This document shows, in pieces, positions 11,189 to 49,482 of a stretch of 64,000 nt of DNA; position 1 is the first letter of the stretch, and each line of letters begins with the position of its first letter. This DNA comes from Bradyrhizobium prioriisuperbiae (GTDB lineage: Bacteria; Pseudomonadota; Alphaproteobacteria; Rhizobiales; Xanthobacteraceae). A model generated the notes under the pieces. That model ran no database searches. It saw only the letters and a list, made by a program, of their open reading frames with translations, and was not told the DNA's origin. The stretch spans positions 8,854,501 to 8,918,500 of the forward strand of contig NZ_CP135921.1 in assembly GCF_032397745.1 (NCBI RefSeq), in the 5' to 3' direction. The translations under genes were made by a program, and so were the position numbers.

Positions 11189-11233
11189 CCTGGCGTGGTC
11201 ATATACGCGATCCCAGCCTTGCCACTATGAAGC

Positions 11234-15625: not shown

Positions 15626-16061
15626 TCTCGATCCTTCCGGTCAGCCAGTTGACGCGCACCTCGTAGCCGGCATCGAACCGCGTCAGCGCGATGGTGCCGC
15701 CGCACGACATGCCGTTGGCGAAAAAATCGATGGTCGACAGCGCCGCACGCCGGTTGCAGGTCTGCGGCAGCAGGGTGTCGAAGCGAACATCGTCGGGAAT
15801 GCGCAGCACCGCCGACGTCGCGCCGGAACGGATCGAGCGCGTGCCGGCGTCGACCAGGGTCGCAACGTCGATCTGGCGCCGGATTGCCGCATTACGATCC
15901 GCCTTCAGCAGTGTCGCGGCTTCCAGCGCATAAGCCTGCAACCGCGAGCGTGAGGTCTGGCGGGGAATGAAGGGCAGCAGCACGGCCGCGAGCATGGCGA
16001 TGATCGCCAGCACGCACACCATTTCAAGCAGGGTGAAGCCCTGCTCTGCCCGGTCACTCAT
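15597..16061 (-). CDS. gspH: Type II secretion minor pseudopilin GspH
   Basis: The 154-residue protein starts at MSDRAEQGFTLLEMVCVLAI, a prepilin leader. The long alpha helix (LQAYALEAATLLKADRNAAI) and the C-terminal GspH-type segment (ALSTIDFFANGMSCGGTIAL, VNWLTGRIEI) follow. The start at 16061 overlaps the gspG stop by 8 bp. The frame to 16190 runs back into gspG and is rejected. Confidence 0.84.
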   Translation of the reverse strand: MSDRAEQGFTLLEMVCVLAIIAMLAAVLLPFIPRQTSRSRLQAYALEAATLLKADRNAAIRRQIDVATLVDAGTRSIRSGATSAVLRIPDDVRFDTLLPQTCNRRAALSTIDFFANGMSCGGTIALTRFDAGYEVRVNWLTGRIEIVSRNTAIN

Positions 16062-16530
16062 TTTTCGCGCTGGTCTGGGTGTCGGAGGAAAGATCCGCCG
16101 CAGTGCCGCTGCCGCCCTCCTGACCGTCCGCTCCGTAGGAGACGATTTCATAGGGCCCGCGCTCTCCGGGCGCGCGATAGACATAGGCATGGTTCCAGGG
16201 GTCGGCGGGCACGTTGCCGCCCTTCAGATAGGGGCCGTTCCAGGCGGCGACGCCGGGTGTCCGTCGCACCAGGGCAGCCAATCCTTCCGAACTCGACGGA
16301 AACCGGCCGGCATCAAGATAGAACAGGTCGAGCGCGCTGCCGAAGCTCTGCAACTGGATCTTGGCCGCCTTGACCTTGGACTCGCTGAGATAGTTGAGCA
16401 CGCGCGGACCGATCAGGCCCATGATCAGGCCGATGATGGTGATTACCACCAGCATCTCGACCAGCGTAAAGCCCTGCTCGCTCTCTCTGCTACGCACCGA
16501 GCGTCTGTCGAATTGACCTGCCGACTTCAT
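16054..16530 (-). CDS. gspG: Type II secretion major pseudopilin GspG
   Basis: The 158-residue protein is the main pseudopilus subunit. EQGFTLVEMLVVITIIGLIM (about 18-37) is the processing and assembly segment. The C-terminal signature GPYLKGGNVPADPWNHAYVYRAPG is typical of GspG, including the Asp/Trp calcium-site region and SYGADGQEGG. It is 33 bp downstream of gspF. It is expected to be cleaved and polymerised in the periplasm. Confidence 0.92.
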   Translation of the reverse strand: MKSAGQFDRRSVRSRESEQGFTLVEMLVVITIIGLIMGLIGPRVLNYLSESKVKAAKIQLQSFGSALDLFYLDAGRFPSSSEGLAALVRRTPGVAAWNGPYLKGGNVPADPWNHAYVYRAPGERGPYEIVSYGADGQEGGSGTAADLSSDTQTSAKNE

Positions 16531-16563
16531 CGCAAACCTACTTTCATGTCGTATAGTCTCGTC

Positions 16564-17778
16564 CTAGCCGACGAGTTGGGTGACTGACAGCAGCGCCGTC
16601 ATGACCGAAACGATCAACCCGCCGACAACCGCACTGATAAAGACGATGGCGAGCGGACCGATGATTCCCACGATGCGGTCGAGATTGCGCTGCAGTTTCG
16701 CTTCATAGAATTCGGCAACTCGTCCGGAGAGAGTCGGCAACTGCCCGGTTTCTTCGCCCAGCCGCAGCATCCGCAGCGCCATCGGCGGCAGGCTGTTCGA
16801 GGCGGATAAAGCATCCGACAGTTTGCCGCCATGCCGCACCCGATCGGCGACGGCCATCCAGGCCGACGCGCTACCGGTCACCGACATGATGTCGACAAGG
16901 ATACGTAGCGTGGCCGTGAGATTGACTCCGCTGCCAAGCAGCACGCCGAGATTGCGGCAAAACAGACTGGTGCGGTAGAACTGGAAGATGCCGGCGATGC
17001 CAGGTATTTGCGAGATCGCATTCACCATCGCCGCGCGGGTGTCTGGCCGGCGCAACAGCCACCACATGGCGGCAATCACCGCGACCGACCCCAGCATCAT
17101 CACGGCGCCGTTGTCGCGAAGAAAATCGGACAGCTTCATGAAGACGCTGAGCGCGGAGTCCGATTTGGAGCCGAAGTCCTGCAGCACCGAGGAGAATTGC
17201 GGCAGCACGAACAGGATGAAAAACAGCATGACGCCGACGGCGGCGACCAGAACGAACGCCGGATATTGCATCGCGTCCGTCAGCTTGCGGCGCATCTGTT
17301 CGGAGCGCGCGCGTTCGGTTCCCAGCATTTCCAGCACCTGGTCGAGAGTGCCTGATACCTCACCGACTTTCACCAGCGCCACATACATCGCGGGAAACAG
17401 CGCCGGATGGGCCGCCACCGCGCTTGCGAAATTCTCGCCACTGAGCAGCGCGGCCCGCAATTTCGCAACCACCGGGCGCAACCGCCCGACATCGGCATCG
17501 CTGGCGAGCAGTTCCAGCGCATCGTCGAGGCGCGCGCCGGCTTTCAACAGCAATGCCAGGTCACGGGTAAATGTCGTCACTTCGGCCGCGGACGGCTTGT
17601 TGAACAAACTGAATCCGCCGGACGACGCCGCAGCTGCGCCCTTCTCCTCGATGGTCTCGATCGGCAGCAGCTTGAGATATTCGATGCGCTGGGCGACCTC
17701 CTTCGCGGTCGGCGCCGACAGCGTGCCGTGCACGATCTCCCCGTTCTGTGTCAGCGCCCGGTAGCGGAAATTTGGCAT
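16564..17778 (-). CDS. gspF: Type II secretion inner-membrane protein GspF
   Basis: The 404-residue protein has two GspF/PilC repeats, each a cytoplasmic helical domain (FTRDLALLLKAGARLDDALE, RTSLFCRNLGVLLGSGVNL) followed by membrane segments, three in all. The start MPNFRYRALTQNGEIVHG at 17778 is typical of the family. The frame reaching 18015 lies inside gspE. It forms the core of the inner-membrane platform next to GspE. gspE ends 8 bp upstream. Confidence 0.92.
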   Translation of the reverse strand: MPNFRYRALTQNGEIVHGTLSAPTAKEVAQRIEYLKLLPIETIEEKGAAAASSGGFSLFNKPSAAEVTTFTRDLALLLKAGARLDDALELLASDADVGRLRPVVAKLRAALLSGENFASAVAAHPALFPAMYVALVKVGEVSGTLDQVLEMLGTERARSEQMRRKLTDAMQYPAFVLVAAVGVMLFFILFVLPQFSSVLQDFGSKSDSALSVFMKLSDFLRDNGAVMMLGSVAVIAAMWWLLRRPDTRAAMVNAISQIPGIAGIFQFYRTSLFCRNLGVLLGSGVNLTATLRILVDIMSVTGSASAWMAVADRVRHGGKLSDALSASNSLPPMALRMLRLGEETGQLPTLSGRVAEFYEAKLQRNLDRIVGIIGPLAIVFISAVVGGLIVSVMTALLSVTQLVG

Positions 17779-17786
17779 GATTGGCC

Positions 17787-19463
17787 TTACCGCACGGTGG
17801 TGACGCGGAGGATTTCCGCAGGCGAAGTCAGACCGGCGCGGCATTTGGCGATGCCGTCGTCGAGCATGGTGGTCATCCCCTCGCGGATCGCGGTCTGGTC
17901 GATCTTCAGGCCGTCGGTCCGCTCGCCGATCAGTTCCCGAATCTCGTTGCTCAGTTCGAGCACCTCGAACACACCGAGCCGGCCGCGATAGCCGGTGCCG
18001 CCGCAGCGCTCGCAACCGCAGGGATCATGCAAGGTTTCGCCGGCCTGAAAGCCGAACGCACTGAGCCGGGGATCTTCGGTGATATCGGCCGCAGTCAGAA
18101 CTCTCGGTGTCTTGCAGCGCTCACACAACTGGCGAACCAGACGCTGGGCGATCACCGCACGCAGGGTGGAGCGCAGCAGATAGCCTTCGACACCGAGATC
18201 GAGCAGGCGGGGCACCGCCGCGGCGGCGGTTTCGGTGTGCAGCGTCGTCAGCACGAGATGCCCGGTCAGCGCGGCGTGAACGGCAACATGGGCGGTCTCG
18301 GTGTCGCGGACTTCGCCGACCATGATTACGTCAGGATCCTGGCGGACGAACGAGCGCAACGCCGCGGCGAACGTCAGCCCGATGGCGGGCTTGATCTGTG
18401 CTTGATTGACGCCGGGAATTTCATACTCGACCGGATCCTCGACGGTGAGGATTTTCCGGGTCGGTTCGTTCAGGATCGACAGGATGGTCGCCAGTGTCGT
18501 GGTCTTGCCGCTGCCGGTCGGACCGGTGATGACGATCAAACCGTGGGGCAGCTTCAGCAGCCGCCGCAGCTTGACGTCGTCGGCCGACGAGAACCCCAGC
18601 TTCTCGACCACCAGCAGGCCACGATCCTTCGGCAACAGGCGGATCACGGCGGATTCGCCGTGCTGCATCGGCATGATCGCAACACGGATATCGATGTCGG
18701 AGCGCCCCGCCCGCAGCCGCGCCGCGCCATCCTGCGGCAAGCGCCGTTCGGCGATATTGAGATTGGCGAGAATCTTGATGCGGGAAATCACCGCCTGCGG
18801 CAACACACCGGCTGGCGCCGCCACCGGCCGCAGCAGGCCATCGATCCGCATGCGAACAACAAGCCCGCTCTGAAAAGGCTCGATGTGAATATCGCTGGCG
18901 CGCAACTCGACAGCTTTTTCCAGGAGATCGCTGACGGCCCGAACCACCGGCGCGCCACTGGCGAGATCGCGCAGGCTCTCGATGTCGTCTTCGCGCGGCT
19001 GATGGGCTTCACCGGCGCCATGGGTCTCGACCGCCTCGTCGCCGAGGCGCTGGTTGAACGCGACGTTGAGATCCTCGACCGACGCCACCTTGATCGCAAT
19101 ATTTGCGCCGAGCACGATTTCAGCCGCCCGTCGCGCCGCCAGATCGGTCGGATCGGCCATGGCCAGCACCGCGCGGCCATCGTCGGATCGATAGGGAAAC
19201 ACCATCATCTCGCGCAGGAAGCGCTGCGAGAACGACGCCGCCAGAGGAGCCGCGGACAGGATGTTTTGCAAAGCGACCCGCTCGAGCTTCAAGAACCGCG
19301 CTGCCTCGTCGGCGAATTCATTCGCGGTCAGGTCGGTCAGTTCCCACAGTTTGCCTGCGAACTGTTCCGCGCCGCCGCGATCCACCGGCGCATCGCCAGC
19401 CGGCGCCAGACGATTGATCTGGCGAAGGTGCGCAACGAATTGCAAGGACTCGTCGCTGGTCAT
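17787..19463 (-). CDS. gspE: Type II secretion ATPase GspE
   Basis: The 558-residue secretion ATPase has an N1/N2 region (about 1-165) and the motor domain. Walker A GPTGSGKTTT is at about 314-323, the Asp box LTVEDPVEYEIPG at about 339-351, Walker B PDVIMVGEVRDTET at about 377-390 and the His box GHLVLTTLHT at about 401-410. A C-terminal zinc site is formed by Cys 447/450 and 484/487 (CERC and CERC). It is the first gene of the minus-strand gsp operon and powers pseudopilus assembly. It is divergent from gspD across a 357-bp gap. Confidence 0.94.
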   Translation of the reverse strand: MTSDESLQFVAHLRQINRLAPAGDAPVDRGGAEQFAGKLWELTDLTANEFADEAARFLKLERVALQNILSAAPLAASFSQRFLREMMVFPYRSDDGRAVLAMADPTDLAARRAAEIVLGANIAIKVASVEDLNVAFNQRLGDEAVETHGAGEAHQPREDDIESLRDLASGAPVVRAVSDLLEKAVELRASDIHIEPFQSGLVVRMRIDGLLRPVAAPAGVLPQAVISRIKILANLNIAERRLPQDGAARLRAGRSDIDIRVAIMPMQHGESAVIRLLPKDRGLLVVEKLGFSSADDVKLRRLLKLPHGLIVITGPTGSGKTTTLATILSILNEPTRKILTVEDPVEYEIPGVNQAQIKPAIGLTFAAALRSFVRQDPDVIMVGEVRDTETAHVAVHAALTGHLVLTTLHTETAAAAVPRLLDLGVEGYLLRSTLRAVIAQRLVRQLCERCKTPRVLTAADITEDPRLSAFGFQAGETLHDPCGCERCGGTGYRGRLGVFEVLELSNEIRELIGERTDGLKIDQTAIREGMTTMLDDGIAKCRAGLTSPAEILRVTTVR

Positions 19464-35912: not shown

Positions 35913-35963
35913 GACGATAACGCCTTCGGTCGTTACGCCTTGTTATCTCCGGAGATCCGGGAC

Positions 35964-37010
35964 GTGAAAACATTTTGCCGCCGCGTCGCTCTCGGCCTCG
36001 TCATGGGCCTTGGTCTCGCTCTGCTCACGGTACCGGCCATCGCACGGACCGTCACCGACTCCGCGGGGCGGCAGGTCGAGGTTCCCGACAAGATCTCAAG
36101 GGTCTTTGCCGCCGGACCGCCGGCTTCCACCCTGCTCTATGTGCTGGCGCCACAAGACATGGTGGGCTGGGTGCGCGCGCCACGGGACACTGAGAAGCCG
36201 TTTCTGCTGCCGGCGACGCGCGAACTCCCAGAACTCGGCCGTCTCACCGGCCGGGGCGACACCCTCAATCTCGAGCGGTTGGTCGCCGAGAAGCCGGACC
36301 TGATCGTCGATTTCGGCAGCATCAACGACACCTATCGATCCCTCGCCGATCGGGTCCAGACACAGGCCGGTATCCCTTATCTCCTGATCGATGGACGCTT
36401 CAGCAACACGGCGGCAGCGCTGCGACTGCTTGCCGATGTACTCGGCGTCAAGGAGCGCGGCGAAACGCTGGCGCGCGCCACTGAAGAAATCTTCGGACAA
36501 GTGGATCGCGTGCTCGCGCAGGTCCCTGCCGACAAACGGCCGCGCGTCTATCTGGCCCGCGGTCCGGAAGGACTCGAGACCGGCTCGCGCGGCTCGATCA
36601 ACACCGAGATCATCGAGCGCGTCGGTGCCATCAATGTGGTCGAAGGCCTGCGCGCGAAGGGCGGCATTACGCCGGTCTCACCGGAGCAGCTGATCGCATG
36701 GGCACCTGACACGCTGATCACGCTCGACCGCGGCTTCCGGCGGAGCGTGGCGCAGAAGGCGGAGTGGCAGCCGGTGCCTGCGGTGGCAGCCGGCCGCGTC
36801 TTCCTGGCGCCAGGTCTGCCCTATGGCTTCATCGACGCGCCACCATCCGTGAACCGGCTGATCGGCCTGACCTGGCTGCTGCATACACTCTATCCGGACA
36901 AGGCACCCGGCGACCTGCGCGAACAGGTGCGGACATTCTATCATGTGTTTTACCAGGTCGATCTGACCGACAGTGATCTCACCCGGCTGCTCGACAATTC
37001 CGGAGGCTGA
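35964..37010 (+). CDS. FecB/BtuF-type ABC transporter substrate-binding protein
   Basis: The 348-residue periplasmic binding protein (PF01497 type) has a signal peptide (VKTFCRRVALGLVMGLGLAL, cleavage near PAIA) and the N-terminal signature RTVTDSAGRQVEVPDKISRV. Cluster motifs LVAEKPDLIVDFG and APDTLITLD follow. GTG at 35964 is used because GGAG lies upstream and the signal starts there; TTG at 35940 is weaker. It is followed by permease and ATPase genes and should bind a metal chelate such as a ferric siderophore. No TonB receptor is adjacent. Confidence 0.87.
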   Translation: MKTFCRRVALGLVMGLGLALLTVPAIARTVTDSAGRQVEVPDKISRVFAAGPPASTLLYVLAPQDMVGWVRAPRDTEKPFLLPATRELPELGRLTGRGDTLNLERLVAEKPDLIVDFGSINDTYRSLADRVQTQAGIPYLLIDGRFSNTAAALRLLADVLGVKERGETLARATEEIFGQVDRVLAQVPADKRPRVYLARGPEGLETGSRGSINTEIIERVGAINVVEGLRAKGGITPVSPEQLIAWAPDTLITLDRGFRRSVAQKAEWQPVPAVAAGRVFLAPGLPYGFIDAPPSVNRLIGLTWLLHTLYPDKAPGDLREQVRTFYHVFYQVDLTDSDLTRLLDNSGG

Positions 37011-37020
37011 GGACCCCGTC

Positions 37021-38022
37021 TTGCGCACGGCAACTGTCTTCGTTCTGCTGACGATCCTTCTTGTCGCGATGGCTGCGATCGCGTCAGGAATTGGCCCCTA
37101 TCATATTTCGCTGCCGACGGTGCTCGATGCTATCCTGCAGCGGCCCTTCGGTGACGGATCGAGCCCCGTCGACACCGTACTCTTCAACATTCGTTTTCCG
37201 CGCGTCGCGGCTGCAGGTTTCGTGGGCGCTGCGCTCGCGGCCGCCGGGGCGGCCTATCAAAGCCTCTTCCGCAATCCGCTGGTCTCTCCCGACATTCTCG
37301 GCGTCTCGACCGGCGCCGGCCTCGGCGCTGTGCTCGGCATCCTGCTTGGCTTGCCTGTGATGGCGATCCAGGTGTTCGGGTTCATTGGCGGTCTGGTGAC
37401 AGTGATGGTTGTCGCGACACTCGCCCGCGCACTGCGCGGCGGAGGCGACGTGCTGGTTCTGGTGCTGGCCGGCATCGTGGTCGGCGCGCTCGCGGGCGCC
37501 GCCATCTCGCTGGTCAAGGTGCTGGCCGATCCCTACAACCAGCTTCCGGCGATCACGTTCTGGCTGCTCGGCAGTCTCGCCGGCATCAAGGCGAGCGACA
37601 TCGCAGCGACCGCTCCGCTGGTGGCGCTTGGGCTGGCACCGCTGCTGCTGCTGCGCTGGCGCATTGGCGTGCTCTCGCTCGGCGACGACGAAGCCCGCGC
37701 ACTGGGCGTCAACGTCAGCGCATTGCGGATCGTGGTGATCGCCGCCGCGACCCTTGTTACCGCAAGCGCGGTGGCGATCTCCGGTGTGATCGGCTGGGTC
37801 GGACTGATGGTGCCGCACATGGCGCGGATGCTGGTCGGGCCGCGCTTCGACCGATTGCTGCCCGCGGCGATCCTGCTCGGCGCGTCCTTCATGATTGGCG
37901 TCGACACGCTAGCGCGCTCGGCCGCGCGCATTGAGATTCCACTCGGTGTGCTGACTGCCGTGATCGGCGGACCGGTGTTCGTCTGGCTGCTCGCCCGACG
38001 CCGCCGGGAATTGTTGCCATGA
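37021..38022 (+). CDS. FecCD-type ABC transporter permease
   Basis: The 333-residue protein has about ten membrane helices and the FecCD signatures RFPRVAAAGFVGAALAAAGA, QSLFRNPLVSPDILGVSTGAGLG and GVIGWVGLMVPHMARMLVG. Translation most likely starts at TTG 37021 (GAGGA seven bases upstream), giving a normal family length. It is 10 bp after the binding-protein gene and overlaps the ATPase gene by ATGA. It forms the transmembrane channel of the importer. Confidence 0.9.
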   Translation: MRTATVFVLLTILLVAMAAIASGIGPYHISLPTVLDAILQRPFGDGSSPVDTVLFNIRFPRVAAAGFVGAALAAAGAAYQSLFRNPLVSPDILGVSTGAGLGAVLGILLGLPVMAIQVFGFIGGLVTVMVVATLARALRGGGDVLVLVLAGIVVGALAGAAISLVKVLADPYNQLPAITFWLLGSLAGIKASDIAATAPLVALGLAPLLLLRWRIGVLSLGDDEARALGVNVSALRIVVIAAATLVTASAVAISGVIGWVGLMVPHMARMLVGPRFDRLLPAAILLGASFMIGVDTLARSAARIEIPLGVLTAVIGGPVFVWLLARRRRELLP

Positions 38023-38816
38023 CGGCGCTGCTTGAGGCCCGCAAACTGTCGATCGGATATGGCGCCACGCGGATCGCCGCCGGCCTCGACCTGTCACTCG
38101 CGGCGGGCACCGTCACCTGCCTGCTGGGGCCGAACGGCATCGGCAAGACCACGCTGTTCAAGACCCTGCTCGGCCTGATCCCGCCCCTCGCAGGCTCGGT
38201 TCAGATCGATGGCAAAAACCTCGAGCAGCTTGATCGCCAGGCCATCGCGCGCCAGGTCGCCTACGTTCCGCAGGCGCGCCCACCCGAGTTCGCCTACACC
38301 GTGCGCGATCTCGTGGTGATGGGACGAACCGCCTATCTCGGTCCGTTCGGCGTGCCCGGGCCGCGCGACCATGACGCAGCGACCACAGCTCTCGAAACAC
38401 TGGGCATCGCAGCGCTGGCGGAACGGGATTCGACACGGATCTCGGGTGGGCAGCAGCAGCTTGCCCTGATCGCCCGGGCGCTGGCGCAGGAGGCCCACGT
38501 CATCGTGATGGACGAGCCGACCGCAAGCCTCGACATCGGCAATCGCAGCCTGGTGCTCGACACGGTGCGCCGGCTAGCGCGCAGCGGTCTTGCGGTGGTG
38601 CTGTCGACCCACGACCCCGAACATGCGTTCGTGGTCGCCGACCATGTCGCGATCCTCGGGCGCAACGACCGCTTCATCACCGGGCCGGTCGAAACCGTCA
38701 TGACCTCGCAGGAGCTGTCGCAGCTTTATGGTTTGGCGTTGCGCGTCGAGCAGACCCCGTCCGGCCGCCATGTGGTCGGCCCCGACCGAACGGAGATGGC
38801 CCCACCAGCAGTGTAG
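38019..38816 (+). CDS. FecE-type ABC transporter ATPase
   Basis: The 265-residue ATPase has Walker A LLGPNGIGKTTL (about 35-46), Q-loop VAYVPQARPPEF, signature ISGGQQQLALIARALAQ (about 141-157), Walker B VIVMDEPTASLD and H-loop STHDPEHA. The signature Gly-Gly-Gln is normal for siderophore and B12 importers. Its ATG overlaps the permease stop. With the upstream two genes it makes a complete importer. Confidence 0.93.
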   Translation: MTALLEARKLSIGYGATRIAAGLDLSLAAGTVTCLLGPNGIGKTTLFKTLLGLIPPLAGSVQIDGKNLEQLDRQAIARQVAYVPQARPPEFAYTVRDLVVMGRTAYLGPFGVPGPRDHDAATTALETLGIAALAERDSTRISGGQQQLALIARALAQEAHVIVMDEPTASLDIGNRSLVLDTVRRLARSGLAVVLSTHDPEHAFVVADHVAILGRNDRFITGPVETVMTSQELSQLYGLALRVEQTPSGRHVVGPDRTEMAPPAV

Positions 38817-41225: not shown

Positions 41226-42551
41226 TCAGCCATGCCGCATTGATGACCGCTGCGAGCGCTCGTGATGCTTGTCCGCAACCTGCAGCCCGTGATCGAGCGC
41301 ATCCAGAAGCTGTCCAGATTCGTGTTCGGAGATCACCAGCGGCGGCGCCAGAAACAGCGAGGTCTGTTCGCCGCTGGTGCCGATCACCGCGCCGGCCTCC
41401 AGGGCGCGCAGTGCGACCCGCGATGCGATCGGCTGCTCGGTGGTGTCGGCACTCCATAAGCGCCAGTCCGGTCCGTGCAGCTCGACCGTCCAGTGCAGGC
41501 CCTGCCCCGCGACACGGCAAACACTGGGATGCCGCCGCGCGATCTCGAGCAGACGGCGCGCGAACAATGCCTCCAGCGTCCGCACCCGCGACAGGATATC
41601 CTCTTCCACAACAGCACGCAGATAGGCGCTGACGGCGGCCATACTGATGGGATGACCGCGCAGCGTGCCGTAATTCTGCCAGCTCGTGCCCTTGAGCTGT
41701 TCGACGATCGCCTTCGACACCACGACGGCCGCGACGGACGCGGCACCGCCGCCGAGCGATTTGCCCAGTGTCACAATATCCGGTCGGCTGTCAGCGCCCT
41801 GAAACGCAAACCAGCGCCCTGCTCGTCCGGCGCCCGTCACCACCTCGTCGGCGATCCAGATCGAACCGGCCTGGCGTGCATGGCCAGCGACTTCGTCCTG
41901 ATACGCGCCGTCGTAGTAGATGCCGCCCTGGGTATAGTCGATGATCGTCGCCGCGGTCTCCGACAGGGTCTGCGCGGCACCGGCGAGCAATTCCTTTGCG
42001 GACGCGGCATTCGGCGGGGCGCCATAAATCGCGCCCTCCGGAGCCGGCAAAATCCGGACCGGCGCCATGGCCGCGGGCCGGCGCGACCCACCGGCATGCA
42101 CGGCAAGGCCGCCGTGCCACTGCGGCTGCACCGTCATGCTGCGCGACAGGCCGACCAGACCATGATAGGCGCGCTCCCGCGTCGCGAGCGGAGTGCGCTG
42201 GGTCAGAGCCTGGCACAACGACAGCGCCATATCGTTGGCTTCGCTGCCGCTGATGCAGAAACGCACGGCACCGACCCAGTTTTCCTCGCCCTTGAACGCC
42301 GTACCGATCAGATCGTCCGCGGCCTGTTCACGCCCGATCCAGGTCCAGCCTTCGTTGACCACCGGCGTATCCGCGGCGCGGCGGATCGCTTCTACCATCG
42401 CCGGGTGGCGATGGCCGAGACCGCCGCCGGTGTTGCTGCCGTCGATCAGGCGGCGGCCGTCGTCGAGATGGAAATAGACGCCCTCGCCGCCGACCACCGT
42501 CAGCGGCGCGCTGTCGCCGGCATTGAGGCCGGTCCGCAACAGTCTGCTCAT
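41226..42551 (-). CDS. Class-III PLP aminotransferase (glutamate-1-semialdehyde mutase-like)
   Basis: The 441-residue PLP enzyme of fold type I has substrate/PLP motifs RFCISGSEANDMALSLCQAL, WIADEVVTGAGRAGRWFAFQ (Asp for the PLP nitrogen) and the lysine loop VTLGKSLGGGAASVAAVVVS. The N-terminus (GLNAGDSAPLTVVGGEGVYF) resembles the HemL-like group. It ends the minus-strand cluster MocR-SBP-HyuA-HyuB-aminotransferase and overlaps hyuB by ATGA. It probably handles an amino or keto compound released by HyuAB, with regulation by the MocR-type protein. The substrate is unknown. Confidence 0.88.
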   Translation of the reverse strand: MSRLLRTGLNAGDSAPLTVVGGEGVYFHLDDGRRLIDGSNTGGGLGHRHPAMVEAIRRAADTPVVNEGWTWIGREQAADDLIGTAFKGEENWVGAVRFCISGSEANDMALSLCQALTQRTPLATRERAYHGLVGLSRSMTVQPQWHGGLAVHAGGSRRPAAMAPVRILPAPEGAIYGAPPNAASAKELLAGAAQTLSETAATIIDYTQGGIYYDGAYQDEVAGHARQAGSIWIADEVVTGAGRAGRWFAFQGADSRPDIVTLGKSLGGGAASVAAVVVSKAIVEQLKGTSWQNYGTLRGHPISMAAVSAYLRAVVEEDILSRVRTLEALFARRLLEIARRHPSVCRVAGQGLHWTVELHGPDWRLWSADTTEQPIASRVALRALEAGAVIGTSGEQTSLFLAPPLVISEHESGQLLDALDHGLQVADKHHERSQRSSMRHG

Positions 42552-44137
42552 TGCTGTCTTTCCATGTCTGCCACGCGATAACCACCACCGCCGCAGCTCT
42601 CGATGGTGACGAGATCATCCCGCTGCAACACCAGATTCGACTTGCCGTCGATCTCGATATTTTCGCCTTGCCTGACCAGCGAGATCCGGCATGCCTGCCC
42701 CGGCGCGCCACCCTGCAAGCCGAATGGCGCGATCACCATGCGCTCGACACACGTCGTCAGATGCATGGAGGGTGCCAGCACGCGATAGGCGCGCACAACG
42801 CCGTCGCCGCCGCGATGCCGGCCGGCTCCACCGGATTGCCGGCGGATCGCCTGTCGCTCGACACGGATCTTGTAGTTCGCCTCGATCACTTCCACCGGAG
42901 TGTTGGAGGTGTTGGCGAGATGCACGCGGGTCGCGGACACACCGGCGCGATCGTGCCGCGCACCCTCACCACCGCCATGCACTTCGTAGAGCATCTTCCA
43001 GGAACCGTCCGCCCGTGGCTCGGCGAAAAACAGCATGCCGGAGGTGGTGGCGCCGCCGGCCGACAGGCGCTCCGGAATCACGTCCTGCATGGCGCGGAAC
43101 ACTGCGTCGACAATTCGCATCGAGGTCTCGTGGTTGCCGGCCGCAACCGCCGCGGTCCAGCCCGGCTCCAGGATGGAGCCCGGACGGGTGATGATGGTAA
43201 GCGGACGGAGCGCGCCGGCATTCTGCTGCATGTCACGCCCGCTCATGATGCGGGCGGCGTAGGCCACCGCGGAGCGGGCGATGAACGGCGTAGTGTTGCA
43301 GAAATTCGAGACCCGGTCGCAGCTTCCCGACAGGTCGAAGGTGGCCTCATCGCCCGTGATGCTGATCTTGACATGGATGCGTGCGGGCGCGCCGCCGATG
43401 TCGCCGTCGTCGAGAAAATCCTCACCCTGATAGACCCCGTCAGGCAGCTCGCGGATCGCGTCCCGCATCTCGATCTCCGACAGATCGTGCAGGCGCGACA
43501 AGGAAGCAAGGAACATCTCCGTGCCGTGTTGCCGGCAGAGCTCCACAATCCGCTTCTCGCCGGCTCTGGTGGCGGCGATCTGTCCGAGCAGGTCACCTTC
43601 GCAGGCCTGGGGATCACGCACGTTAGCGATCAGCAGCTGCAAAATCGGTGTATTCACGCCGGCCGCGGTCGCAATCAGTACCGGCGGAATCCGGATCGCC
43701 TCCTGAAAGGTATCGATCGCCTTGGCAAAATAACTCCCGGGCCAGGTGCCGCCGACATCGGGCCAGTGCGCAAGGCTGATCGCAAAGGCCACGATGCGGC
43801 CATCGACAAACACCGGCCGCACCACCTTGACGTCGTTGAGATGATTGCCGCCGAGCGCGCCGAGGTTGTAGATCAGCACGTCGCCATCGTTCAGACCGGC
43901 TGATGGGACGACCTTCAGGAGCTCGGGAATGGTATAGGCCATCGCACCGAGATGGATCGGGATATCGCGCCCCTGCCCGACCAGCCCTCCTTTCGCATCG
44001 GTGATCGCCGATGACAGGTCGCCGGCTTCGCGCAGCAGCGGCGAGCGGGCCGAGCGTGTCATCACCAGGCTCATCTCCTCGGCGGCCGCGGACAGGCCGT
44101 GCCGGATCACTTCGACGGCAAACGGATCGAGTTTCAT
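42548..44137 (-). CDS. hyuB: Hydantoinase B / oxoprolinase-type subunit
   Basis: The 529-residue protein is a complete HyuB (PF02538): KLDPFAVEVIRHGLSAAAEE at the start, SAITDAKGGLVGQGRDIPIH, LIYNLGALGGNHLNDVKVVR, HGGGEGARHDRAGVSATRVH and the C-terminal glycine-rich SGGAGRHRGGDGVVRAYRVL. HyuA and HyuB together hydrolyse cyclic amides such as N-methylhydantoin or 5-oxoproline using ATP. The start at 44137 overlaps the hyuA stop by ATGA. The exact ring substrate is unknown here. Confidence 0.9.
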   Translation of the reverse strand: MKLDPFAVEVIRHGLSAAAEEMSLVMTRSARSPLLREAGDLSSAITDAKGGLVGQGRDIPIHLGAMAYTIPELLKVVPSAGLNDGDVLIYNLGALGGNHLNDVKVVRPVFVDGRIVAFAISLAHWPDVGGTWPGSYFAKAIDTFQEAIRIPPVLIATAAGVNTPILQLLIANVRDPQACEGDLLGQIAATRAGEKRIVELCRQHGTEMFLASLSRLHDLSEIEMRDAIRELPDGVYQGEDFLDDGDIGGAPARIHVKISITGDEATFDLSGSCDRVSNFCNTTPFIARSAVAYAARIMSGRDMQQNAGALRPLTIITRPGSILEPGWTAAVAAGNHETSMRIVDAVFRAMQDVIPERLSAGGATTSGMLFFAEPRADGSWKMLYEVHGGGEGARHDRAGVSATRVHLANTSNTPVEVIEANYKIRVERQAIRRQSGGAGRHRGGDGVVRAYRVLAPSMHLTTCVERMVIAPFGLQGGAPGQACRISLVRQGENIEIDGKSNLVLQRDDLVTIESCGGGGYRVADMERQQ

Positions 44138-46134
44138 GTCGCCACCCTGGTGAGGAAGAGGTTTCCAAGAGCATCGGGTTTCGCCTGCCACCCCGGCGGC
44201 ACTACCACCGTTGACCAGGCGTCTTCGATGACTGCCGGCCCGCTGACCATATCCGCAAGCGCCGCCCGGTCCACGATCAGAGTTCGAACCTCCGGTGCAT
44301 TGTCGAACGAGCATGTGCGCCAAACGGCGGAAGCCTGTCGCACCGTGGTCGCCGGCCGACCAATCGCGGTCGTCGACGGCTGGCGTGCCTGCACCCGCAC
44401 TGATTCGATCACACAGCTCTCCCCAGTCGCGTACCCGAACAGCTCGCGATGCCGGGTCAGGAAATCGTCTTGCAGGCGCGCGACGTCGAGCGGCAGTACG
44501 AACGGCACCGGAATGGCATCGTTCTGTGCGGCATAACGCATCAGCGCCACCAGCTCGATGCCGATCGAGGCCTTTGCGATGCCATTGGCGATAAGCGGCT
44601 CCGACGCAAGCCCGATCAATGTGTCGATCCGCATTGACACCTCAGCGAGATCGACGCCGTCCAGCGCCACGCGCAGTGTCTGTTGCTGCAGGAAGCTGAA
44701 GTCGGCCGTGAGGCAGCCAAGTGCGGAAAACGCACTGGAGGCGGCCGGCACCACGATCGCGCCGATGCCGTAGATCTCCGCAAGCCCGGCCGCATGCATC
44801 GGTCCGCCGCCGCCGAAGGCAAGCAGCGTGCAATCGCGCCCATCGATGCCGCGTTCCACCGTCACCCGGCGCAGCGCTCGGGCCATTGTCGCATTGGCAA
44901 CCCGGACAATACCAAGCGCCGTCTCGGTCAGGCCCAACCCGAGCGCCTGGGCGATCGGCGCGATGACACGCTCGGCAGCCGCGACGTCGAGGCCGATCTC
45001 ATCACCGAGCCTGGTCTCCGGATTGAGATAGCCGAGCAGCGCATTGGCATCGGTAATGGTCGGCGCGGTACCACTGCGGCCATAGCAGGCGGGGCCTGGC
45101 TCCGATCCCGCGCTCTCAGGGCCAACCGTCAGTCCGCCGGGGCCGTTGCGCACGATCGAGCCACCACCGGCACCGATCGAATGCACCGCCAGCATCGGTT
45201 GACGCAACGGCCGGTCGCCAAGCATGCGCCCGTCGGCCATCTCGGCCTGGCCATCGACGATCAGGCAGACGTCGGTGGTGGTGCCGCCCATGTCGAAGGT
45301 CAGCATGCGCGCCGTGCCGAGCTGGCGCGCAATGCCGACCGACGCCGATACGCCGGCGGCGGGGCCGGACATCGCCATCACCAGCGGACGGCGTTTCACC
45401 GCGGAAATCGGAATCATGGCGCCGGCGGAATGAAACACCTGCAGTCCCGGCCCGATCGGCAACCGGTGTTCCAACTCGCTGAGGTACTCGACTGCGATCG
45501 GCATCGCCGCCGCATTGAACACGGTCGACGATGTCCGCTCGTATTCGCGCGCCTCCGGGTTGATCTCGTGGGACAGCGAGACGTGCGGCACGATGCCCGC
45601 AAGGCGCTGCGCCAGTTTCTTCTCATGCACCGGATTGGCATAGGCATGAAGCAGGGCCACCGCCACGCTTTGCACACCAGTCGCTTTTAGCCAAACCAGC
45701 AGCCGCTCGATCTCGTTCTCGTCCAGCGGCTTGAGCACCTCGCCGTCATGATCGAGCCGCTCGGCAAGGCCGAAGCACAGGTCGGGCGGCACCAGCGGGG
45801 GCGACTTCGGCGGAATGTCCAGGCGATAAAGATCGCGCCGGCGATAACGCGCGATCTCCAGCACGTCCTCGAAGCCTTCTGTCGCCACCAGCGCAACCTT
45901 CGGCAGCCTGCCTTCCACAATCGCGTTGGTGATCCGGGTGGTGCCGTGGATGAAACGCTTGACCTCGGTCTTGCGCAGCCCGACGGCTTCGATCGCTTCC
46001 AGCATCGCCTGCACTGGCGCATGCGGACGCGACGGCACTTTGGCAATGCGGGTTTCCGCGGTGTCATGCCGGATGGCGATGATGTCCGTGAAAGTGCCGC
46101 CGATGTCGGTGCCGATTTCCCAGAGTCTGTCCAC
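44134..46134 (-). CDS. hyuA: Hydantoinase A / oxoprolinase-type subunit
   Basis: The 666-residue protein has the ASKHA-type nucleotide motif IGTDIGGTFTDIIAI at the N-terminus, FIHGTTRITNAIVEGRLP, LTFDMGGTTTDVCLIVDG, IGAGGGSIVRN and LAFGGGGPMHAAGLAEIYG, all typical of HyuA/oxoprolinase A. The start is GTG at 46134, just after the binding-protein stop at 46151. The ATG at 46179 would lie inside that gene. It is coupled to hyuB. With HyuB it should form the ATP-dependent ring-opening enzyme. Confidence 0.9.
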   Translation of the reverse strand: MDRLWEIGTDIGGTFTDIIAIRHDTAETRIAKVPSRPHAPVQAMLEAIEAVGLRKTEVKRFIHGTTRITNAIVEGRLPKVALVATEGFEDVLEIARYRRRDLYRLDIPPKSPPLVPPDLCFGLAERLDHDGEVLKPLDENEIERLLVWLKATGVQSVAVALLHAYANPVHEKKLAQRLAGIVPHVSLSHEINPEAREYERTSSTVFNAAAMPIAVEYLSELEHRLPIGPGLQVFHSAGAMIPISAVKRRPLVMAMSGPAAGVSASVGIARQLGTARMLTFDMGGTTTDVCLIVDGQAEMADGRMLGDRPLRQPMLAVHSIGAGGGSIVRNGPGGLTVGPESAGSEPGPACYGRSGTAPTITDANALLGYLNPETRLGDEIGLDVAAAERVIAPIAQALGLGLTETALGIVRVANATMARALRRVTVERGIDGRDCTLLAFGGGGPMHAAGLAEIYGIGAIVVPAASSAFSALGCLTADFSFLQQQTLRVALDGVDLAEVSMRIDTLIGLASEPLIANGIAKASIGIELVALMRYAAQNDAIPVPFVLPLDVARLQDDFLTRHRELFGYATGESCVIESVRVQARQPSTTAIGRPATTVRQASAVWRTCSFDNAPEVRTLIVDRAALADMVSGPAVIEDAWSTVVVPPGWQAKPDALGNLFLTRVAT

Positions 46135-46150
46135 GTCGATTGTGCCCCGT

Positions 46151-47755
46151 TTACTTGCGGCTGAGATCGCGAAAATCAACCTGGCGGTGGAACCAGTAGG
46201 TATAGCCCTCCAGGTTCAGCGCCATCACGGCCTCCTGATTGGCCTGCCACAGCAGCACCAGCGGCATCTCCCGGACGTATTCCGCAATCATCTGCCTGCT
46301 CATGTCTTCGTATCTGGCCGCGTCCAGCTCGAAACGTGCCTTGGCGCCGAGGTCAGCGACGGTGGCGTCGTTCCACGAACTGTAGTTCCAGCGCTGGTTG
46401 GCGGTGAAGAAGTTTCGGAAGAAATAATCGGTGGTCGGCAGCCACGCGTTGGAAGACTCCGTGAAGAACGGCAGCTTCTTCTCGGTGATGTTTGTGCTCA
46501 TCTGCGCATCGGGCAGCTTCTGGATTTCCACTTCGACCCCGACTTTGGCCAGCGACTCCTTGATCAGGGCGGCCATTGGTTCCGTGATGGACGCCGAGCC
46601 GACATTGATGGTGAAGGTGGTCTTGAAACCACTGGCGAACCCCGCCTCGGCCAGTAACTGCTTCGCCTTGGCGAGATCGGTCGTCACCGGCATCGGCTGC
46701 GGGAAGTTTCCGCTTGGCGGCTGCGTCCAGGCAGCGTTGAACAGTGGAAAGCCTCGCTTGAAGATCGCGGCGCTGAACATGCCGTCATAGGGCAGCGCGG
46801 CCGCGACCGCCTGGCGCACTTTAACATTATCGAACGGCGGCATCTGCGTGTTGAAGACGATCATGGTGAAGCCGTTGCTCTGCGGCGTCGAATCGACCCG
46901 AAGCTTGCCGCCCGACTGCAGCGACACCACATCGCTGGCCTGCAGATCGATGGCGATATCGGCGTCACCCTTCTCGATCAGGTTGGCGCGGGTGGCGGCT
47001 TCCGGAATCGTCTGCTCGATCACGCGCTTGAAAAACGGCAGCTTGCCGTCGCGCCCGCCGGTCCAATTCTCATTGCGCCGGAGCACGATCTGCTCGCCGG
47101 GCTTGAAGGCTTCGACGGTGTAGGCGCCGCTGCCGGCGGTATTGGTCTTCATCCAGTCCTGCGCCCACGGATCTTCCGCCGTCGCATGCTGCCGGGCGAG
47201 CTTGCTGTTGATGATGGGCGCCAGCGGCGTCGCCAGATTGGCCAGCGCCAGGCGGTCGGGCTTGGGCAGCGTCACCTCGACCGTGCGGTCGTCAACAACC
47301 CTGAACTGCTCCGGCATGGTCAGCGATCCCGTCCCGATCTGCCCCGCGGCAAGCGACTTGGCACTGACGGCGCGATCCAGCGACCATTTGACGTCTTCGG
47401 CGGTGACCGGCGTGCCGTCATGCCATTTCGCAGGACGCAGCTTGAAGGTGATCTTGAGGCCGTCCGGGCTCACCTCGTAGCTTTCGGCGAGTTCGCCGCG
47501 GATCCTGGCGCGATCGAACACCCAGACATTGCCTTCGCGCTTGCGGTCGAACGCGACCAGCCGATCATAGATCGAGACCGACACGCCGAATGCCTCGCGT
47601 GTCGCCCCCAGCATGGTCGGATCCAGGGTGTTGATGGTGTTGCCCGTCACCTGGCGCAACGTCTCCGCGCGCGTCTGGGCCTGCACGGCAGCGGGCGCGG
47701 ACAACAGACATGCCGCGATCAGGATCTTCAAGACGAAACTGCGATCAGCCATCAT
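46151..47755 (-). CDS. Orphan peptide/nickel-type ABC substrate-binding protein
   Basis: The 534-residue SBP family 5 protein has a signal peptide (about 1-27, SAPAAVQAQ) and the family markers NTLDPTMLGATREAFGVSV, YEVSPDGLKITFKLRPAKWH-type core, DGTPVTAEDVKWSLDRAV and KVRQAVAAALPYDGMF. No permease or ATPase genes accompany it, so it must share a transporter encoded elsewhere or act as a periplasmic binding or sensing protein. The start is ATG at 47755 (GGAG upstream); GTG at 47758 is adjacent. It precedes hyuA by 16 bp and probably delivers the compound HyuAB uses. Confidence 0.88.
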   Translation of the reverse strand: MMADRSFVLKILIAACLLSAPAAVQAQTRAETLRQVTGNTINTLDPTMLGATREAFGVSVSIYDRLVAFDRKREGNVWVFDRARIRGELAESYEVSPDGLKITFKLRPAKWHDGTPVTAEDVKWSLDRAVSAKSLAAGQIGTGSLTMPEQFRVVDDRTVEVTLPKPDRLALANLATPLAPIINSKLARQHATAEDPWAQDWMKTNTAGSGAYTVEAFKPGEQIVLRRNENWTGGRDGKLPFFKRVIEQTIPEAATRANLIEKGDADIAIDLQASDVVSLQSGGKLRVDSTPQSNGFTMIVFNTQMPPFDNVKVRQAVAAALPYDGMFSAAIFKRGFPLFNAAWTQPPSGNFPQPMPVTTDLAKAKQLLAEAGFASGFKTTFTINVGSASITEPMAALIKESLAKVGVEVEIQKLPDAQMSTNITEKKLPFFTESSNAWLPTTDYFFRNFFTANQRWNYSSWNDATVADLGAKARFELDAARYEDMSRQMIAEYVREMPLVLLWQANQEAVMALNLEGYTYWFHRQVDFRDLSRK

Positions 47756-47889
47756 CACACTGCTTCTCCTGCTGGATCATCCCGCCTGAATTTCTGACAG
47801 ATCCATTGCGCCGCGGACCAGAGCCAGAGTTGCTGTAAACTCGTAGGCCAGCCGGATAGACATGTCGCCCTGTTCCTGCTCTGGCGACA

Positions 47890-47909
47890 GTTGCACATCT
47901 CGGTGCAAC
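47890..47909. promoter_or_regulatory. Inverted repeat between MocR and SBP genes
   Basis: GTTGCAC-ATCTCG-GTGCAAC is a perfect 7-bp inverted repeat with a 6-bp spacer, 135-154 bp upstream of the SBP start. It probably regulates the SBP-hyuAB-aminotransferase transcript, by the MocR protein or another dimeric regulator. MocR proteins usually bind direct repeats, so another regulator is possible. Confidence 0.5.
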
Positions 47910-47941
47910 ACTGCCTTCAGATACGGCATGCCGTCGCATTA

Positions 47942-49444
47942 TCAGGCATCGCTGCCGAGGCATGTCGCGATCCTGGCGATCAGCCGGAACACATCATCGG
48001 TTTGCAACCGTCCGTAGCCGAAGACCAGGCCTTGCCGGGTCGGCGGCTCCAGATGGTTCTGCGACAGCGGCTGGACGTGAATGCCCACCTGCCGGATCAG
48101 CGTCGCCGCCTCCACGTCGCTCATCCGCGCCCGCATACGATCGGTGAACAGGGCCACCAGGTGCAATCCGGTGGCCGCCGCAGACACGGTCAGGTCGTTT
48201 GGCATCTGCGCGGCGATGGCGTCGATCAGCGCCTGCCGCCGCGCGGCATAAACCTTCCGCATCCGCCGCAAGTGCCGCAGCAGATGTCCCTCGCGCATGA
48301 ACTCCGCCAACGCGAGCTGGCCGATACCGGACGTGTGCACGTCGATCCGCGCCCGGCCCTTGGCGAAGGTGTCGACGAACCGCTTATCTGCGACCATGTA
48401 GCCCAACCGCAGGCTCGGCATCATGATCTTGGAAAAGGTGCCGAGATAGATCACCCGCCCCTCGCGGTCGAGCGACCGCAGCGACGCGATCATGCTGTCC
48501 TGATGCCTGAACTCCGAATTGTAGTCGTCCTCGATGATCCGGAGATCGTTCTTGTTCGCCCAGTCCAGGAGTTCGAGGCGCCGCTCCAGTCCCATGCTGA
48601 CGCCGAGCGGATACTGATGCGATGGCGTCACCACGATCAGCTTTGCCCGTGGCGCACGACGAATGCCTTCGGACACGCGCAGGCCCTGGTCGTCGACCGG
48701 GATCGGCACCAGCCTAGCGCCGGCGGCGGTCAGTGCCCACCGTGCCTCGACAAAACCCGGCTCCTCGACCCAGACCTCGTCGCCAGGATCGAGGATCATC
48801 CGACTGCAGACATCCAGTGCGCCGGAGGTGCCCGAGGTCACCACCACCTCGTCTGGCGTACAGACCAAACCGCGCACCGAACCCAGAAAGTTCGCGATTT
48901 CACGCCGCAGCGACGGATGTCCCTGCGGCGGAAGGTCGAGACAATCTGGATGTCGTGGATTCTGCCAGCTCTGACGCAGCAGCCGGGACCATTCCCTGAA
49001 GGGAAAATGCGAGATATCCGGTGCGCCTGGAGCGAATTCGGACGCCCAGTTGGTCTCGTATTCGGACGCCAGCAGCGACCGCCACCGCGCGGAGATGTGT
49101 GCGGTCGTGCCGCCGGTCGACGCCCCCGCGGCGGACGCGGCTGGAACGGGCCGCGCATGGGCAGCCGTGACCGACGCCACCTTGACGCCGCCGCGTGGCG
49201 TCGATTCCAGATAGCCTTCGGCATAGAGCAGATCCCACGCCGTCAGCACCACCGTTCGCGAACACCCCAGTTCTCGCGCGGTTTCCCGCGACCCGAGAAA
49301 CTGCGTTCCCGCCGGAAAAATACCCTGGAGGATGCAGCTGCGCAGATAGGCGGCGATCTGCAGATGAAGCGGAACCGCCGAGGCGCGCTCGATGTGGATT
49401 CCGGCGATGGATACGCGCTTATTCAGGAGGCGGGACTTTTCCAT
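47942..49444 (-). CDS. MocR/PdxR-type transcriptional regulator (GntR + aminotransferase fusion)
   Basis: The 500-residue protein fuses a GntR winged helix (about 20-90; AVPLHLQIAAYLRSCILQGI, SRETARELGCSRTVVLTAWD) to a fold-type-I aminotransferase-like domain (about 120-490; VVVTSGTSGALDVCSRMILD, IIEDDYNSEFRHQDS). The PLP lysine motif is GTFSKIMMPSLRLGYMV. Such proteins sense an amino compound as PLP adduct. It lies directly upstream of the SBP-hyuAB-aminotransferase genes on the same strand and probably controls them. No ribosome site is visible before its ATG, 38 bp after tRNA-Gln. Confidence 0.9.
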   Translation of the reverse strand: MEKSRLLNKRVSIAGIHIERASAVPLHLQIAAYLRSCILQGIFPAGTQFLGSRETARELGCSRTVVLTAWDLLYAEGYLESTPRGGVKVASVTAAHARPVPAASAAGASTGGTTAHISARWRSLLASEYETNWASEFAPGAPDISHFPFREWSRLLRQSWQNPRHPDCLDLPPQGHPSLRREIANFLGSVRGLVCTPDEVVVTSGTSGALDVCSRMILDPGDEVWVEEPGFVEARWALTAAGARLVPIPVDDQGLRVSEGIRRAPRAKLIVVTPSHQYPLGVSMGLERRLELLDWANKNDLRIIEDDYNSEFRHQDSMIASLRSLDREGRVIYLGTFSKIMMPSLRLGYMVADKRFVDTFAKGRARIDVHTSGIGQLALAEFMREGHLLRHLRRMRKVYAARRQALIDAIAAQMPNDLTVSAAATGLHLVALFTDRMRARMSDVEAATLIRQVGIHVQPLSQNHLEPPTRQGLVFGYGRLQTDDVFRLIARIATCLGSDA

Positions 49445-49482
49445 GTGGGGAGGATTTGGCCTCCGAACGGACCACTAAAACC

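What the first reader, a model, noticed from the sequence alone, without database searches (positions are those of the whole stretch)
41226..49444. MocR - orphan SBP - HyuA - HyuB - aminotransferase cluster
All five genes run in one direction; the hyuA-hyuB-aminotransferase junctions overlap by ATGA. A PLP-sensing MocR regulator, a binding protein with no transporter, an ATP-dependent cyclic-amide hydrolase and a HemL-like aminotransferase together look like a dedicated pathway for a cyclic or amino compound that I cannot match to a described one.
Basis: partly seen in the sequence, partly recalled or inferred. Interest (0 to 1): 0.72.

Follow-up and report, generated by a model that had tools for sequence, protein, structure and literature searches.

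The report
MocR-controlled cyclic-amide uptake and breakdown operon
Five neighbouring genes form a conserved, jointly controlled set in soil bacteria related to Bradyrhizobium that most likely takes up a ring-shaped amide, opens the ring with ATP and processes the amino product; the exact substrate is unknown.

Summary
The five genes are real, lie on the minus strand as described, and both ATGA overlaps are there. HyuA, HyuB and the aminotransferase-like gene occur together, in this order, in 63 of 63 related loci (MocR lies between HyuB and that gene in two). The MocR link is firm: two CTGG boxes 24 bp apart (window 47820-47851) are the pattern's only match in the 9.08 Mb genome. Of loci with upstream sequence, 34 of 36 with MocR have the full pattern against 1 of 23 without. 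The binding protein is an orphan only locally: relatives carry a complete ABC transporter in this operon, and all 10 permease-less genomes examined have a sister binding protein with permeases and ATPase elsewhere. In the window's own genome, and in 2 of those 10 in all, a D-hydantoinase lies beside it. Best reading: a catabolic operon for a hydantoin-, dihydropyrimidine- or lactam-like compound, its uptake borrowed from the sister transporter. HyuAB keeps the ATP and metal residues but fails the caprolactamase test. The class III PLP enzyme lacks both arginines that usually hold a carboxylate, so "aminotransferase" is unproven. My searches found no described match.

The parts
47942..49444 (-). 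MocR-type regulator (GntR DNA-binding domain + aminotransferase class I/II domain)
   Evidence: Pfam GntR and Aminotran_1_2; NCBIfam PdxR-type MocR 400 bits over cut-off 320; found in 37 of 63 loci, in L048 only as a fragment
47820..47851 (-). putative MocR operator: two CTGG boxes 24 bp apart, CTGGCCTA-N15-TCTGGCTCT, about 65 bp before the binding-protein start
   Evidence: footprint; single match in own genome, reversed control 0; full pattern in 34 of 36 MocR loci and 1 of 23 without MocR
46151..47755 (-). family-5 (Dpp/Opp-type) ABC solute-binding protein, SBP1; no permease beside it
   Evidence: Pfam SBP_bac_5 284 bits; pN/pS 0.18-0.26 against L002, L025, L051
44134..46134 (-). HyuA, ATP-binding subunit of an ATP-dependent cyclic-amide hydrolase (GTG start inferred)
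   Evidence: Pfam Hydant_A_N and Hydantoinase_A; DIGGTFTD, DMGGT and GSEPGP motifs align with caprolactamase CapA
42548..44137 (-). HyuB, metal-site subunit of the same enzyme
   Evidence: Pfam Hydantoinase_B 545 bits; D40, H99, D102, H124 align with the CapB metal ligands Asp41, His99, Asp102, His124 (ligands)
41226..42551 (-). class III PLP enzyme of an uncharacterised subfamily (aminotransferase-like)
   Evidence: Pfam Aminotran_3 176 bits; K264 and D235 kept; F400 and no Arg at 391-393

Best explanation
The window holds a reduced form of a MocR-controlled catabolic operon. Shown by sequence: one set of genes with regulator and a shared candidate operator, kept together in Bradyrhizobium, Tardiphaga, Roseomonas-type and other alphaproteobacteria. 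Inferred: the binding protein captures a cyclic amide of the hydantoin, dihydropyrimidine or lactam kind; it hands it to the Dpp-type permease and ATPase of a sister transporter, which in this genome lies 2 Mb away beside a D-hydantoinase, because its own were lost; HyuA phosphorylates the ring amide with ATP, HyuB with its metal ion opens the ring; the amino product is deaminated by the class III PLP enzyme, and in relatives the acid is passed to a CoA ligase. MocR senses the compound, or an aldimine of it with PLP, and switches the operon.
For: HyuA, HyuB and the PLP enzyme in 63 of 63 loci, with a D-hydantoinase within the stretch in 51 and a carbon-nitrogen hydrolase in 52 (families). Full operon with transporter in L143, L144, L185, L187, L188, L055 and L051. 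22 of 23 family genomes with the PLP enzyme have this binding-protein type, against 11 of 273 without (Fisher 4.6e-24). All 11 SBP1 genomes have the PLP enzyme; in 10 HyuA follows SBP1 directly and all 10 have SBP2 with both permeases and ATPase elsewhere; the 11th, G459 (the L051 genome or one like it), keeps its own permeases and gave no SBP2 hit at E 1e-150. Permease-less SBP1 copies are under purifying selection like that of the PLP enzyme and HyuA. Operator. ATP and metal residues intact.
Against: No assay, ligand or expression data. Neighbours name a compound class, not a substrate; a D-hydantoinase nearby would make an ATP-dependent hydantoinase redundant. Of the 10 sister transporters only 2 (own L080, and L154) lie with a D-hydantoinase; the other 8 lie with the epimerase, SDR and FAD-oxidoreductase genes, and L149 and L151 have only a 46-52% D-hydantoinase-like match at the edge, so the hydantoin link of that transporter is loose. 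PLP enzymes at 57-65% identity lack this HyuAB: 3 of 4 examined have none in the stretch held (L145 5.3 kb, L184 29.3 kb, L189 13.6 kb) and L146 has different HyuAB pairs. G412 (L155) has HyuA/HyuB and an SBP without a PLP-enzyme hit. The PLP enzyme lacks both usual carboxylate arginines. The operator pattern is not in L080, so co-regulation of the borrowed permease is not shown; sharing rests on co-occurrence alone.
Confidence: 0.5

Rival explanations
1. Lactam pathway of the caprolactam type: HyuAB is a lactamase giving an omega- or beta-amino acid, and the PLP enzyme is an omega-aminotransferase making a semialdehyde or keto acid.
For: Same enzyme pairing as in Pseudomonas jessenii (PMC6061476, passages); CapA/CapB are the best NCBIfam models for HyuA and HyuB (428.6 and 227.8 bits); nearest structures of the PLP enzyme are the S-selective transaminases 5g2p/5g09; CoA ligase in 41 of 63 loci.
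Against: CapA/CapB cut-offs (1000 bits each) not met; CapB vicinal Cys410-Cys411 align with V405-H406; no semialdehyde dehydrogenase in the window cluster; no carboxylate arginine of either usual type.
Confidence: 0.22
2. The PLP enzyme is not an aminotransferase but a racemase, lyase or other class III enzyme acting on an amide, lactam or carboxylate-free amine, feeding or following HyuAB.
For: Both usual carboxylate arginines are absent; after the transaminases 5g2p/5g2q/5g09, Foldseek ranks alpha-amino-epsilon-caprolactam racemase and amino acid amide racemase next; the one racemase alignment shown, 5m4d, also has no arginine at that place.
Against: Closest by score are still transaminases; VIA-align does not separate the families; the family's own invariant arginines such as R74 and R364 could hold a carboxylate; the model is of middling quality, pLDDT 76.6.
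Confidence: 0.2
3. The binding protein is a sensor-type protein or a decaying remnant and takes no part in uptake.
For: No permease in the window cluster; the operator pattern is not found in the sister transporter stretch L080.
Against: Intact frame, pN/pS 0.18-0.26, much as for the PLP enzyme and HyuA; kept in 10 permease-less genomes, all of which also carry a sister permease.
Confidence: 0.12

Closest known systems
Caprolactam degradation cluster of Pseudomonas jessenii (CapAB + omega-aminotransferase)
   Same: ATP-dependent two-subunit cyclic-amide hydrolase with a class III PLP enzyme in one cluster (PMC6061476 passages; PMC8453981 abstract and sections 5 part 1 and 11)
   Different: The regulator named in the passages is CsiR and the induced binding proteins are of other families; CapAB cut-offs and the vicinal disulfide are not met here; the PLP enzyme lacks the usual arginines
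Bradyrhizobium hyuC-hyuH (D-carbamoylase / D-hydantoinase) gene cluster
   Same: A D-hydantoinase lies in the same stretch as HyuA-HyuB-PLP enzyme in 51 of 63 loci; such clusters are mentioned for three Bradyrhizobium strains, two with an opposed racemase, in PMC3546935 (passages)
   Different: D-hydantoinase belongs to another enzyme family than HyuAB and needs no ATP (recalled); the passages shown do not mention HyuAB, MocR or the PLP enzyme; in the window genome it is 2 Mb away
GabR regulons with DppABCD and a GABA aminotransferase; TauR regulons
   Same: MocR regulator with Dpp/Opp transporter and aminotransferase; TauR direct repeats CTGGACYTAA resemble the CTGG boxes here (PMC5320631, passages and section 9)
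   Different: The words hydantoin, oxoprolin and Bradyrhizobi do not occur in its main text; its supplements were not seen
ATP-dependent hydantoinases HyuA/HyuB (Pseudomonas NS671; N-methylhydantoinase 7hk5)
   Same: Same Pfam domains; 7hk5 is the best PDB match by sequence for both subunits
   Different: Substrate not tested; subunits fused in 7hk5; NS671 proteins not compared here

Membership tests
ATP-dependent hydantoinase/oxoprolinase (HyuA + HyuB) | Hydant_A_N + Hydantoinase_A and Hydantoinase_B domains above Pfam cut-off | tested here: met
   165.4, 277.2 and 545.2 bits against 25.2, 22.9, 26.8
ATP-dependent hydantoinase/oxoprolinase (HyuA + HyuB) | ATP motifs and four metal ligands | tested here: met
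   motifs align with CapA; D40/H99/D102/H124 align with the CapB ligands
ATP-dependent hydantoinase/oxoprolinase (HyuA + HyuB) | ATP-dependent ring opening of a hydantoin | not testable with these tools
   needs enzyme assay
Caprolactamase CapAB | NCBIfam equivalog cut-offs | tested here: not met
   428.6 and 227.8 bits, cut-off 1000 each
Caprolactamase CapAB | vicinal disulfide Cys410-Cys411 of CapB (lactamase-specific according to PMC8453981) | tested here: not met
   V405-H406 in the alignment
Acetophenone carboxylase | NCBIfam equivalog cut-offs | tested here: not met
   245.2, 163.9 and 100.2 bits against 1500, 1250, 1500
Class III PLP enzymes (Aminotran_3) | Pfam domain, PLP lysine and aspartate | tested here: met
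   176.4 bits; K264 and D235 invariant in 30 sequences and shared with 12 of 12 own paralogues
Omega- or GABA-type aminotransferase | carboxylate-binding arginine (E. coli GabT R398 type or V. fluvialis R415 type; both recalled) | tested here: not met
   F400 and G391-T392-S393; of 12 own paralogues 5 have Arg and 2 Lys at the first place, 4 others have an Arg a few residues earlier, 1 (L159) has neither (weak alignment for L170)
HemL (glutamate-1-semialdehyde aminomutase) | HemL profile among best matches | tested here: inconclusive
   not among the 25 of 69 models shown; one such structure (2epj) among 60 shown of 185
alpha-Amino-epsilon-caprolactam racemase | racemase activity and its catalytic residues | not tested
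   only overall similarity seen
MocR/GabR regulators | GntR domain fused to aminotransferase I/II domain | tested here: met
MocR/GabR regulators | named subgroup: rhizopine MocR equivalog | tested here: not met
   436.9 bits, cut-off 650; the PdxR-type model passes with 400 over 320
Dpp/Opp-type ABC importer | binding protein with permeases and ATPase in the operon | tested here: not met
   binding protein only in the window; full set in L051, L055 and L143, L144, L185, L187, L188

The most novel reading that the evidence does not exclude
An undescribed cyclic-amide pathway in which a class III PLP enzyme without the usual carboxylate arginine (a racemase, lyase or unusual transaminase) works with ATP-dependent HyuAB under a MocR switch, while its binding protein feeds a permease encoded in a separate operon 2 Mb away, beside a D-hydantoinase.
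Probability: 0.25. Interest if true: 0.62.

Novelty: new variant of a known kind. Interest (0 to 1): 0.45.

Why it matters
It turns a five-gene guess into a set with a candidate operator, a list of genomes and a short substrate list, so the compound can be found by direct tests. It also offers a natural series in which an importer operon seems to have lost its permeases but kept the binding protein under selection, a testable case of transporter sharing. Hydantoins, dihydropyrimidines and lactams are nitrogen compounds of soil and nodules and industrial substrates, so a new ATP-dependent amidohydrolase and a new PLP enzyme subfamily would be of use.

Tried and rejected
Caprolactamase identity: rejected on NCBIfam cut-offs and the missing vicinal cysteines. 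Acetophenone carboxylase: rejected on cut-offs. HemL: not supported, not excluded. Genomic island at tRNA-Gln: the tRNA ends 38 bp before MocR, but I found no empty site; HtpX, which flanks the cluster here, was searched in 6 genomes, found in 4, and in those 4 it lies away from the PLP enzyme; placement differs, nothing more. Structure comparison of the PLP enzyme did not separate transaminase from racemase. Equating the sister D-hydantoinase with B. diazoefficiens Blr3295 (named with dihydrouracil in nodules, PMC4926349 passage): not done, since by name Blr3294 and Blr3295 lie on one strand whereas the racemase-like and D-hydantoinase genes here are opposed. Six locus tags from Blr3287 to Blr3295 searched in print: only Blr3295 found, in one paper. 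Surveys with the PLP enzyme at E 1e-90: genus 1 of 3 genomes, class 3 of 385, order 11 of 397, family 23 of 296; only the best 4-5 candidates per genome were scored in the large ones. Plasmids: 1 record of 72,556.
Full report
Observation. Reading the strand shows ATGA at the HyuA/HyuB and HyuB/PLP-enzyme junctions, a likely GTG start of HyuA at 46134, 16 bases after the binding protein stops, and 186 bases between MocR and a binding-protein start at 47755 (start choices are mine).

Conservation. A scan of species genomes with the PLP enzyme gave 63 loci, mostly Bradyrhizobium and Tardiphaga, with a few Roseomonas-type, Acetobacteraceae and Hyphomicrobiales records. HyuA and HyuB (50% identity or more) precede the PLP enzyme in 63 of 63; in L054 and L055 MocR stands between. 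MocR is within the stretch in 37 (in L048 only a fragment, in L051 cut by the locus edge), the orthologous binding protein SBP1 in 8, an AMP-binding CoA ligase in 41, and genes of a D-hydantoinase operon in most: carbon-nitrogen hydrolase 52, flavin reductase 51, Asp/Glu/hydantoin racemase 52, D-hydantoinase 51, second binding protein SBP2 51 (some loci are cut short). Families of these neighbours: dihydropyrimidinase/D-hydantoinase above cut-off, carbon-nitrogen hydrolase (N-carbamoylputrescine amidase model below cut-off), racemase, flavin reductase, AMP-binding.

Full form of the operon. In more distant relatives (PLP enzyme 66-69% identical) the order is SBP - permease - permease - ATPase - HyuA - HyuB - MocR - PLP enzyme (L143, L144, L185, L187, L188; L055). 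After it L185 has a Lumazine_bd_2 protein, an enoyl-CoA hydratase and the CoA ligase; L187 has the ligase, and L143 and L188 a small protein of similar length that I did not scan. L186 has a D-hydantoinase-type gene (TIGR02033 448.5 over 393.25 bits) upstream of HyuA and no transporter in the 19.9 kb read. L051 has MocR - SBP1 - permeases - ATPase - HyuA - HyuB - PLP enzyme. The window, L002, L025, L037, L046 and L049 have SBP1 without permeases beside it.

The orphan binding protein. In 296 genomes of the family, 23 have the PLP enzyme (E 1e-90) and 33 an SBP1/SBP2-type protein (E 1e-150); 22 have both, 1 the PLP enzyme only, 11 the binding protein only, 262 neither (Fisher 4.6e-24; genomes share ancestry, so the number overstates independence, and only the best few candidates per genome were scored). 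Eleven have SBP1 at 77% identity or more, the window's own included. In 10 of 11 HyuA follows SBP1 directly, and those 10 carry SBP2 with both permeases and ATPase elsewhere; the eleventh, G459 (its permeases are identical to those of L051, so this is one case, not two), keeps permeases beside SBP1 and gave no SBP2 hit. The window's own set is at 6.82-6.83 Mb (L080), permease 74% identical to that of L051, with D-hydantoinase, carbon-nitrogen hydrolase and racemase genes beside it. Only L080 and L154 of the 10 have a D-hydantoinase there; the rest lie with the epimerase, SDR and FAD-oxidoreductase genes, and L149 and L151 have a 46-52% D-hydantoinase-like match at the edge of the stretch. SBP1 is under selection: pN/pS 0.18-0.26 against L002, L025 and L051, like the PLP enzyme (0.15-0.23) and HyuA (0.20-0.23). 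Sharing of the permease is my inference from this pattern.

Regulation. Reading the gaps after MocR and counting shared words gave CTGGYCYA-N15-TCTGGCYCT (11 loci). In the own genome the pattern (spacing 11-15) occurs once, at window 47820-47851, and its reversed control not at all. Over whole loci it is in 34 of 37 with MocR and 1 of 26 without. Counting only the 59 loci with upstream sequence (L050, L055, L056, L062 dropped) and 700 bp before the first gene: full pattern 34 of 36 with MocR against 1 of 23 without; the bare box pair at 24 bp 36 of 36 against 8 of 23, with 206 of 3000 random 700-bp pieces as background. Most of the 8 look like decayed copies of the same site, as if MocR had been lost there first. 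The pattern was built from some of these loci, so the contrast by MocR, not the hit count, is the evidence. The site precedes SBP1 or HyuA, whichever comes first; L051 has a second copy before the PLP enzyme. In L054, L143, L144 and L185 CTGG pairs 22-24 bp apart stand before the binding protein and in L186 before HyuA; in L054, L143 and L185 a pair 24 bp apart also stands before the PLP enzyme (partly read by eye, no statistics). No such pair was found in the 170 bp looked at in L055. So MocR, transporter, HyuAB and the PLP enzyme look like one regulon. TauR of Rhodobacter binds direct repeats CTGGACYTAA, and most MocR motifs hold a conserved TGT or TGG (PMC5320631, passage and section 9). 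The full pattern is absent from the sister stretch L080 and from 12 other fetched stretches tested with it, the distant operons among them.

The hydrolase. HyuA aligns with N-methylhydantoinase 7hk5 and caprolactamase 6yra over nearly its length; HyuB likewise. The four metal ligands of CapB (PMC8453981, section 11) are all kept, the lactamase-specific cysteine pair is not, and caprolactamase and acetophenone carboxylase cut-offs are not met. Hence an ATP-dependent cyclic-amide hydrolase of unknown substrate. The own genome has 5 further HyuA-type genes at 33-39% identity.

The PLP enzyme. K264 and D235 are kept. It has F400 where 5 of 12 own class III paralogues have Arg and 2 have Lys, and G-T-S where 4 others have an arginine nearby; 1 paralogue (L159) has neither (which arginine does what is recalled from GabT and the V. 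fluvialis transaminase). Family-specific invariants include E67, W69, W71, R74, R364, W366, E395 (30 sequences). An AlphaFold model (pLDDT 76.6) is nearest in Foldseek to the S-selective transaminases 5g2p/5g2q/5g09, then to caprolactam and amino acid amide racemases; VIA-align puts many class III families within 3 Z units. Transaminase remains the first guess, not a result.

Against the reading. PLP enzymes at 57-65% identity are found without this HyuAB: on an Ensifer plasmid near a creatininase, arginase-family and amidase genes (L184), in L145 and L189 (short contigs), and in L146 with other HyuA/HyuB pairs, a RidA-type and a beta-keto acid cleavage enzyme. G412 (L155) has HyuA/HyuB and an SBP but no PLP-enzyme hit. 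This points to a PLP enzyme that can work after several kinds of amide or guanidine hydrolases, and to a beta-keto acid as one possible product, but weakly.

Literature. I saw abstract/outline and sections 5 (part 1 of 2) and 11 of PMC8453981; passages of PMC6061476, PMC3546935, PMC6321122, PMC4926349, PMC5979394; abstract/outline, section 9 and passages of PMC5320631. Only search listings otherwise. PMC3546935 notes D-carbamoylase and D-hydantoinase clusters in three Bradyrhizobium strains, two with an opposed racemase between. No paper describing MocR + HyuAB + class III enzyme showed in the listings of searches; only open-licence PMC papers were searched, and supplements were not.

Verdict. 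A real, conserved and apparently co-regulated catabolic operon, reduced in this genome, of unknown substrate; a new variant of known kinds of parts.

Noticed in passing
L184 (Ensifer adhaerens OV14 plasmid pOV14c) 1-15308: Homologue of the PLP enzyme (65%) on a conjugative plasmid near a creatininase, two arginase-family genes (one scanned, one by annotation), an amidase and an amino-acid ABC ATPase, without HyuAB.
   Followed up: partly
L146 6246-13473: PLP-enzyme homologue (61%) beside a different HyuA/HyuB pair, a RidA-type protein and a beta-keto acid cleavage enzyme.
   Followed up: partly
L051 9826-9857: Second copy of the putative MocR operator in the HyuB to PLP-enzyme gap, where the window has overlapping genes.
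   Followed up: partly
L155 (G412) 10632-18152: HyuA/HyuB (69/75%) and an SBP (57%) next to racemase, flavin reductase and carbon-nitrogen hydrolase genes, in a genome without a PLP-enzyme hit.
   Followed up: no
upstream of HyuA in L006, L008, L015, L023, L047, L060: Loci without MocR that keep what look like decaying operator box pairs, a possible series of regulator loss.
   Followed up: no
window 49445-49482: Only 38 bases separate the end of tRNA-Gln (49557-49483) from the MocR start on the same strand; read-through transcription was not examined.
   Followed up: no
window 35940-38816: Plus-strand trio that reads like a siderophore- or vitamin-type ABC importer (binding protein, permease, ATPase); judged from the translation only.
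   Followed up: no
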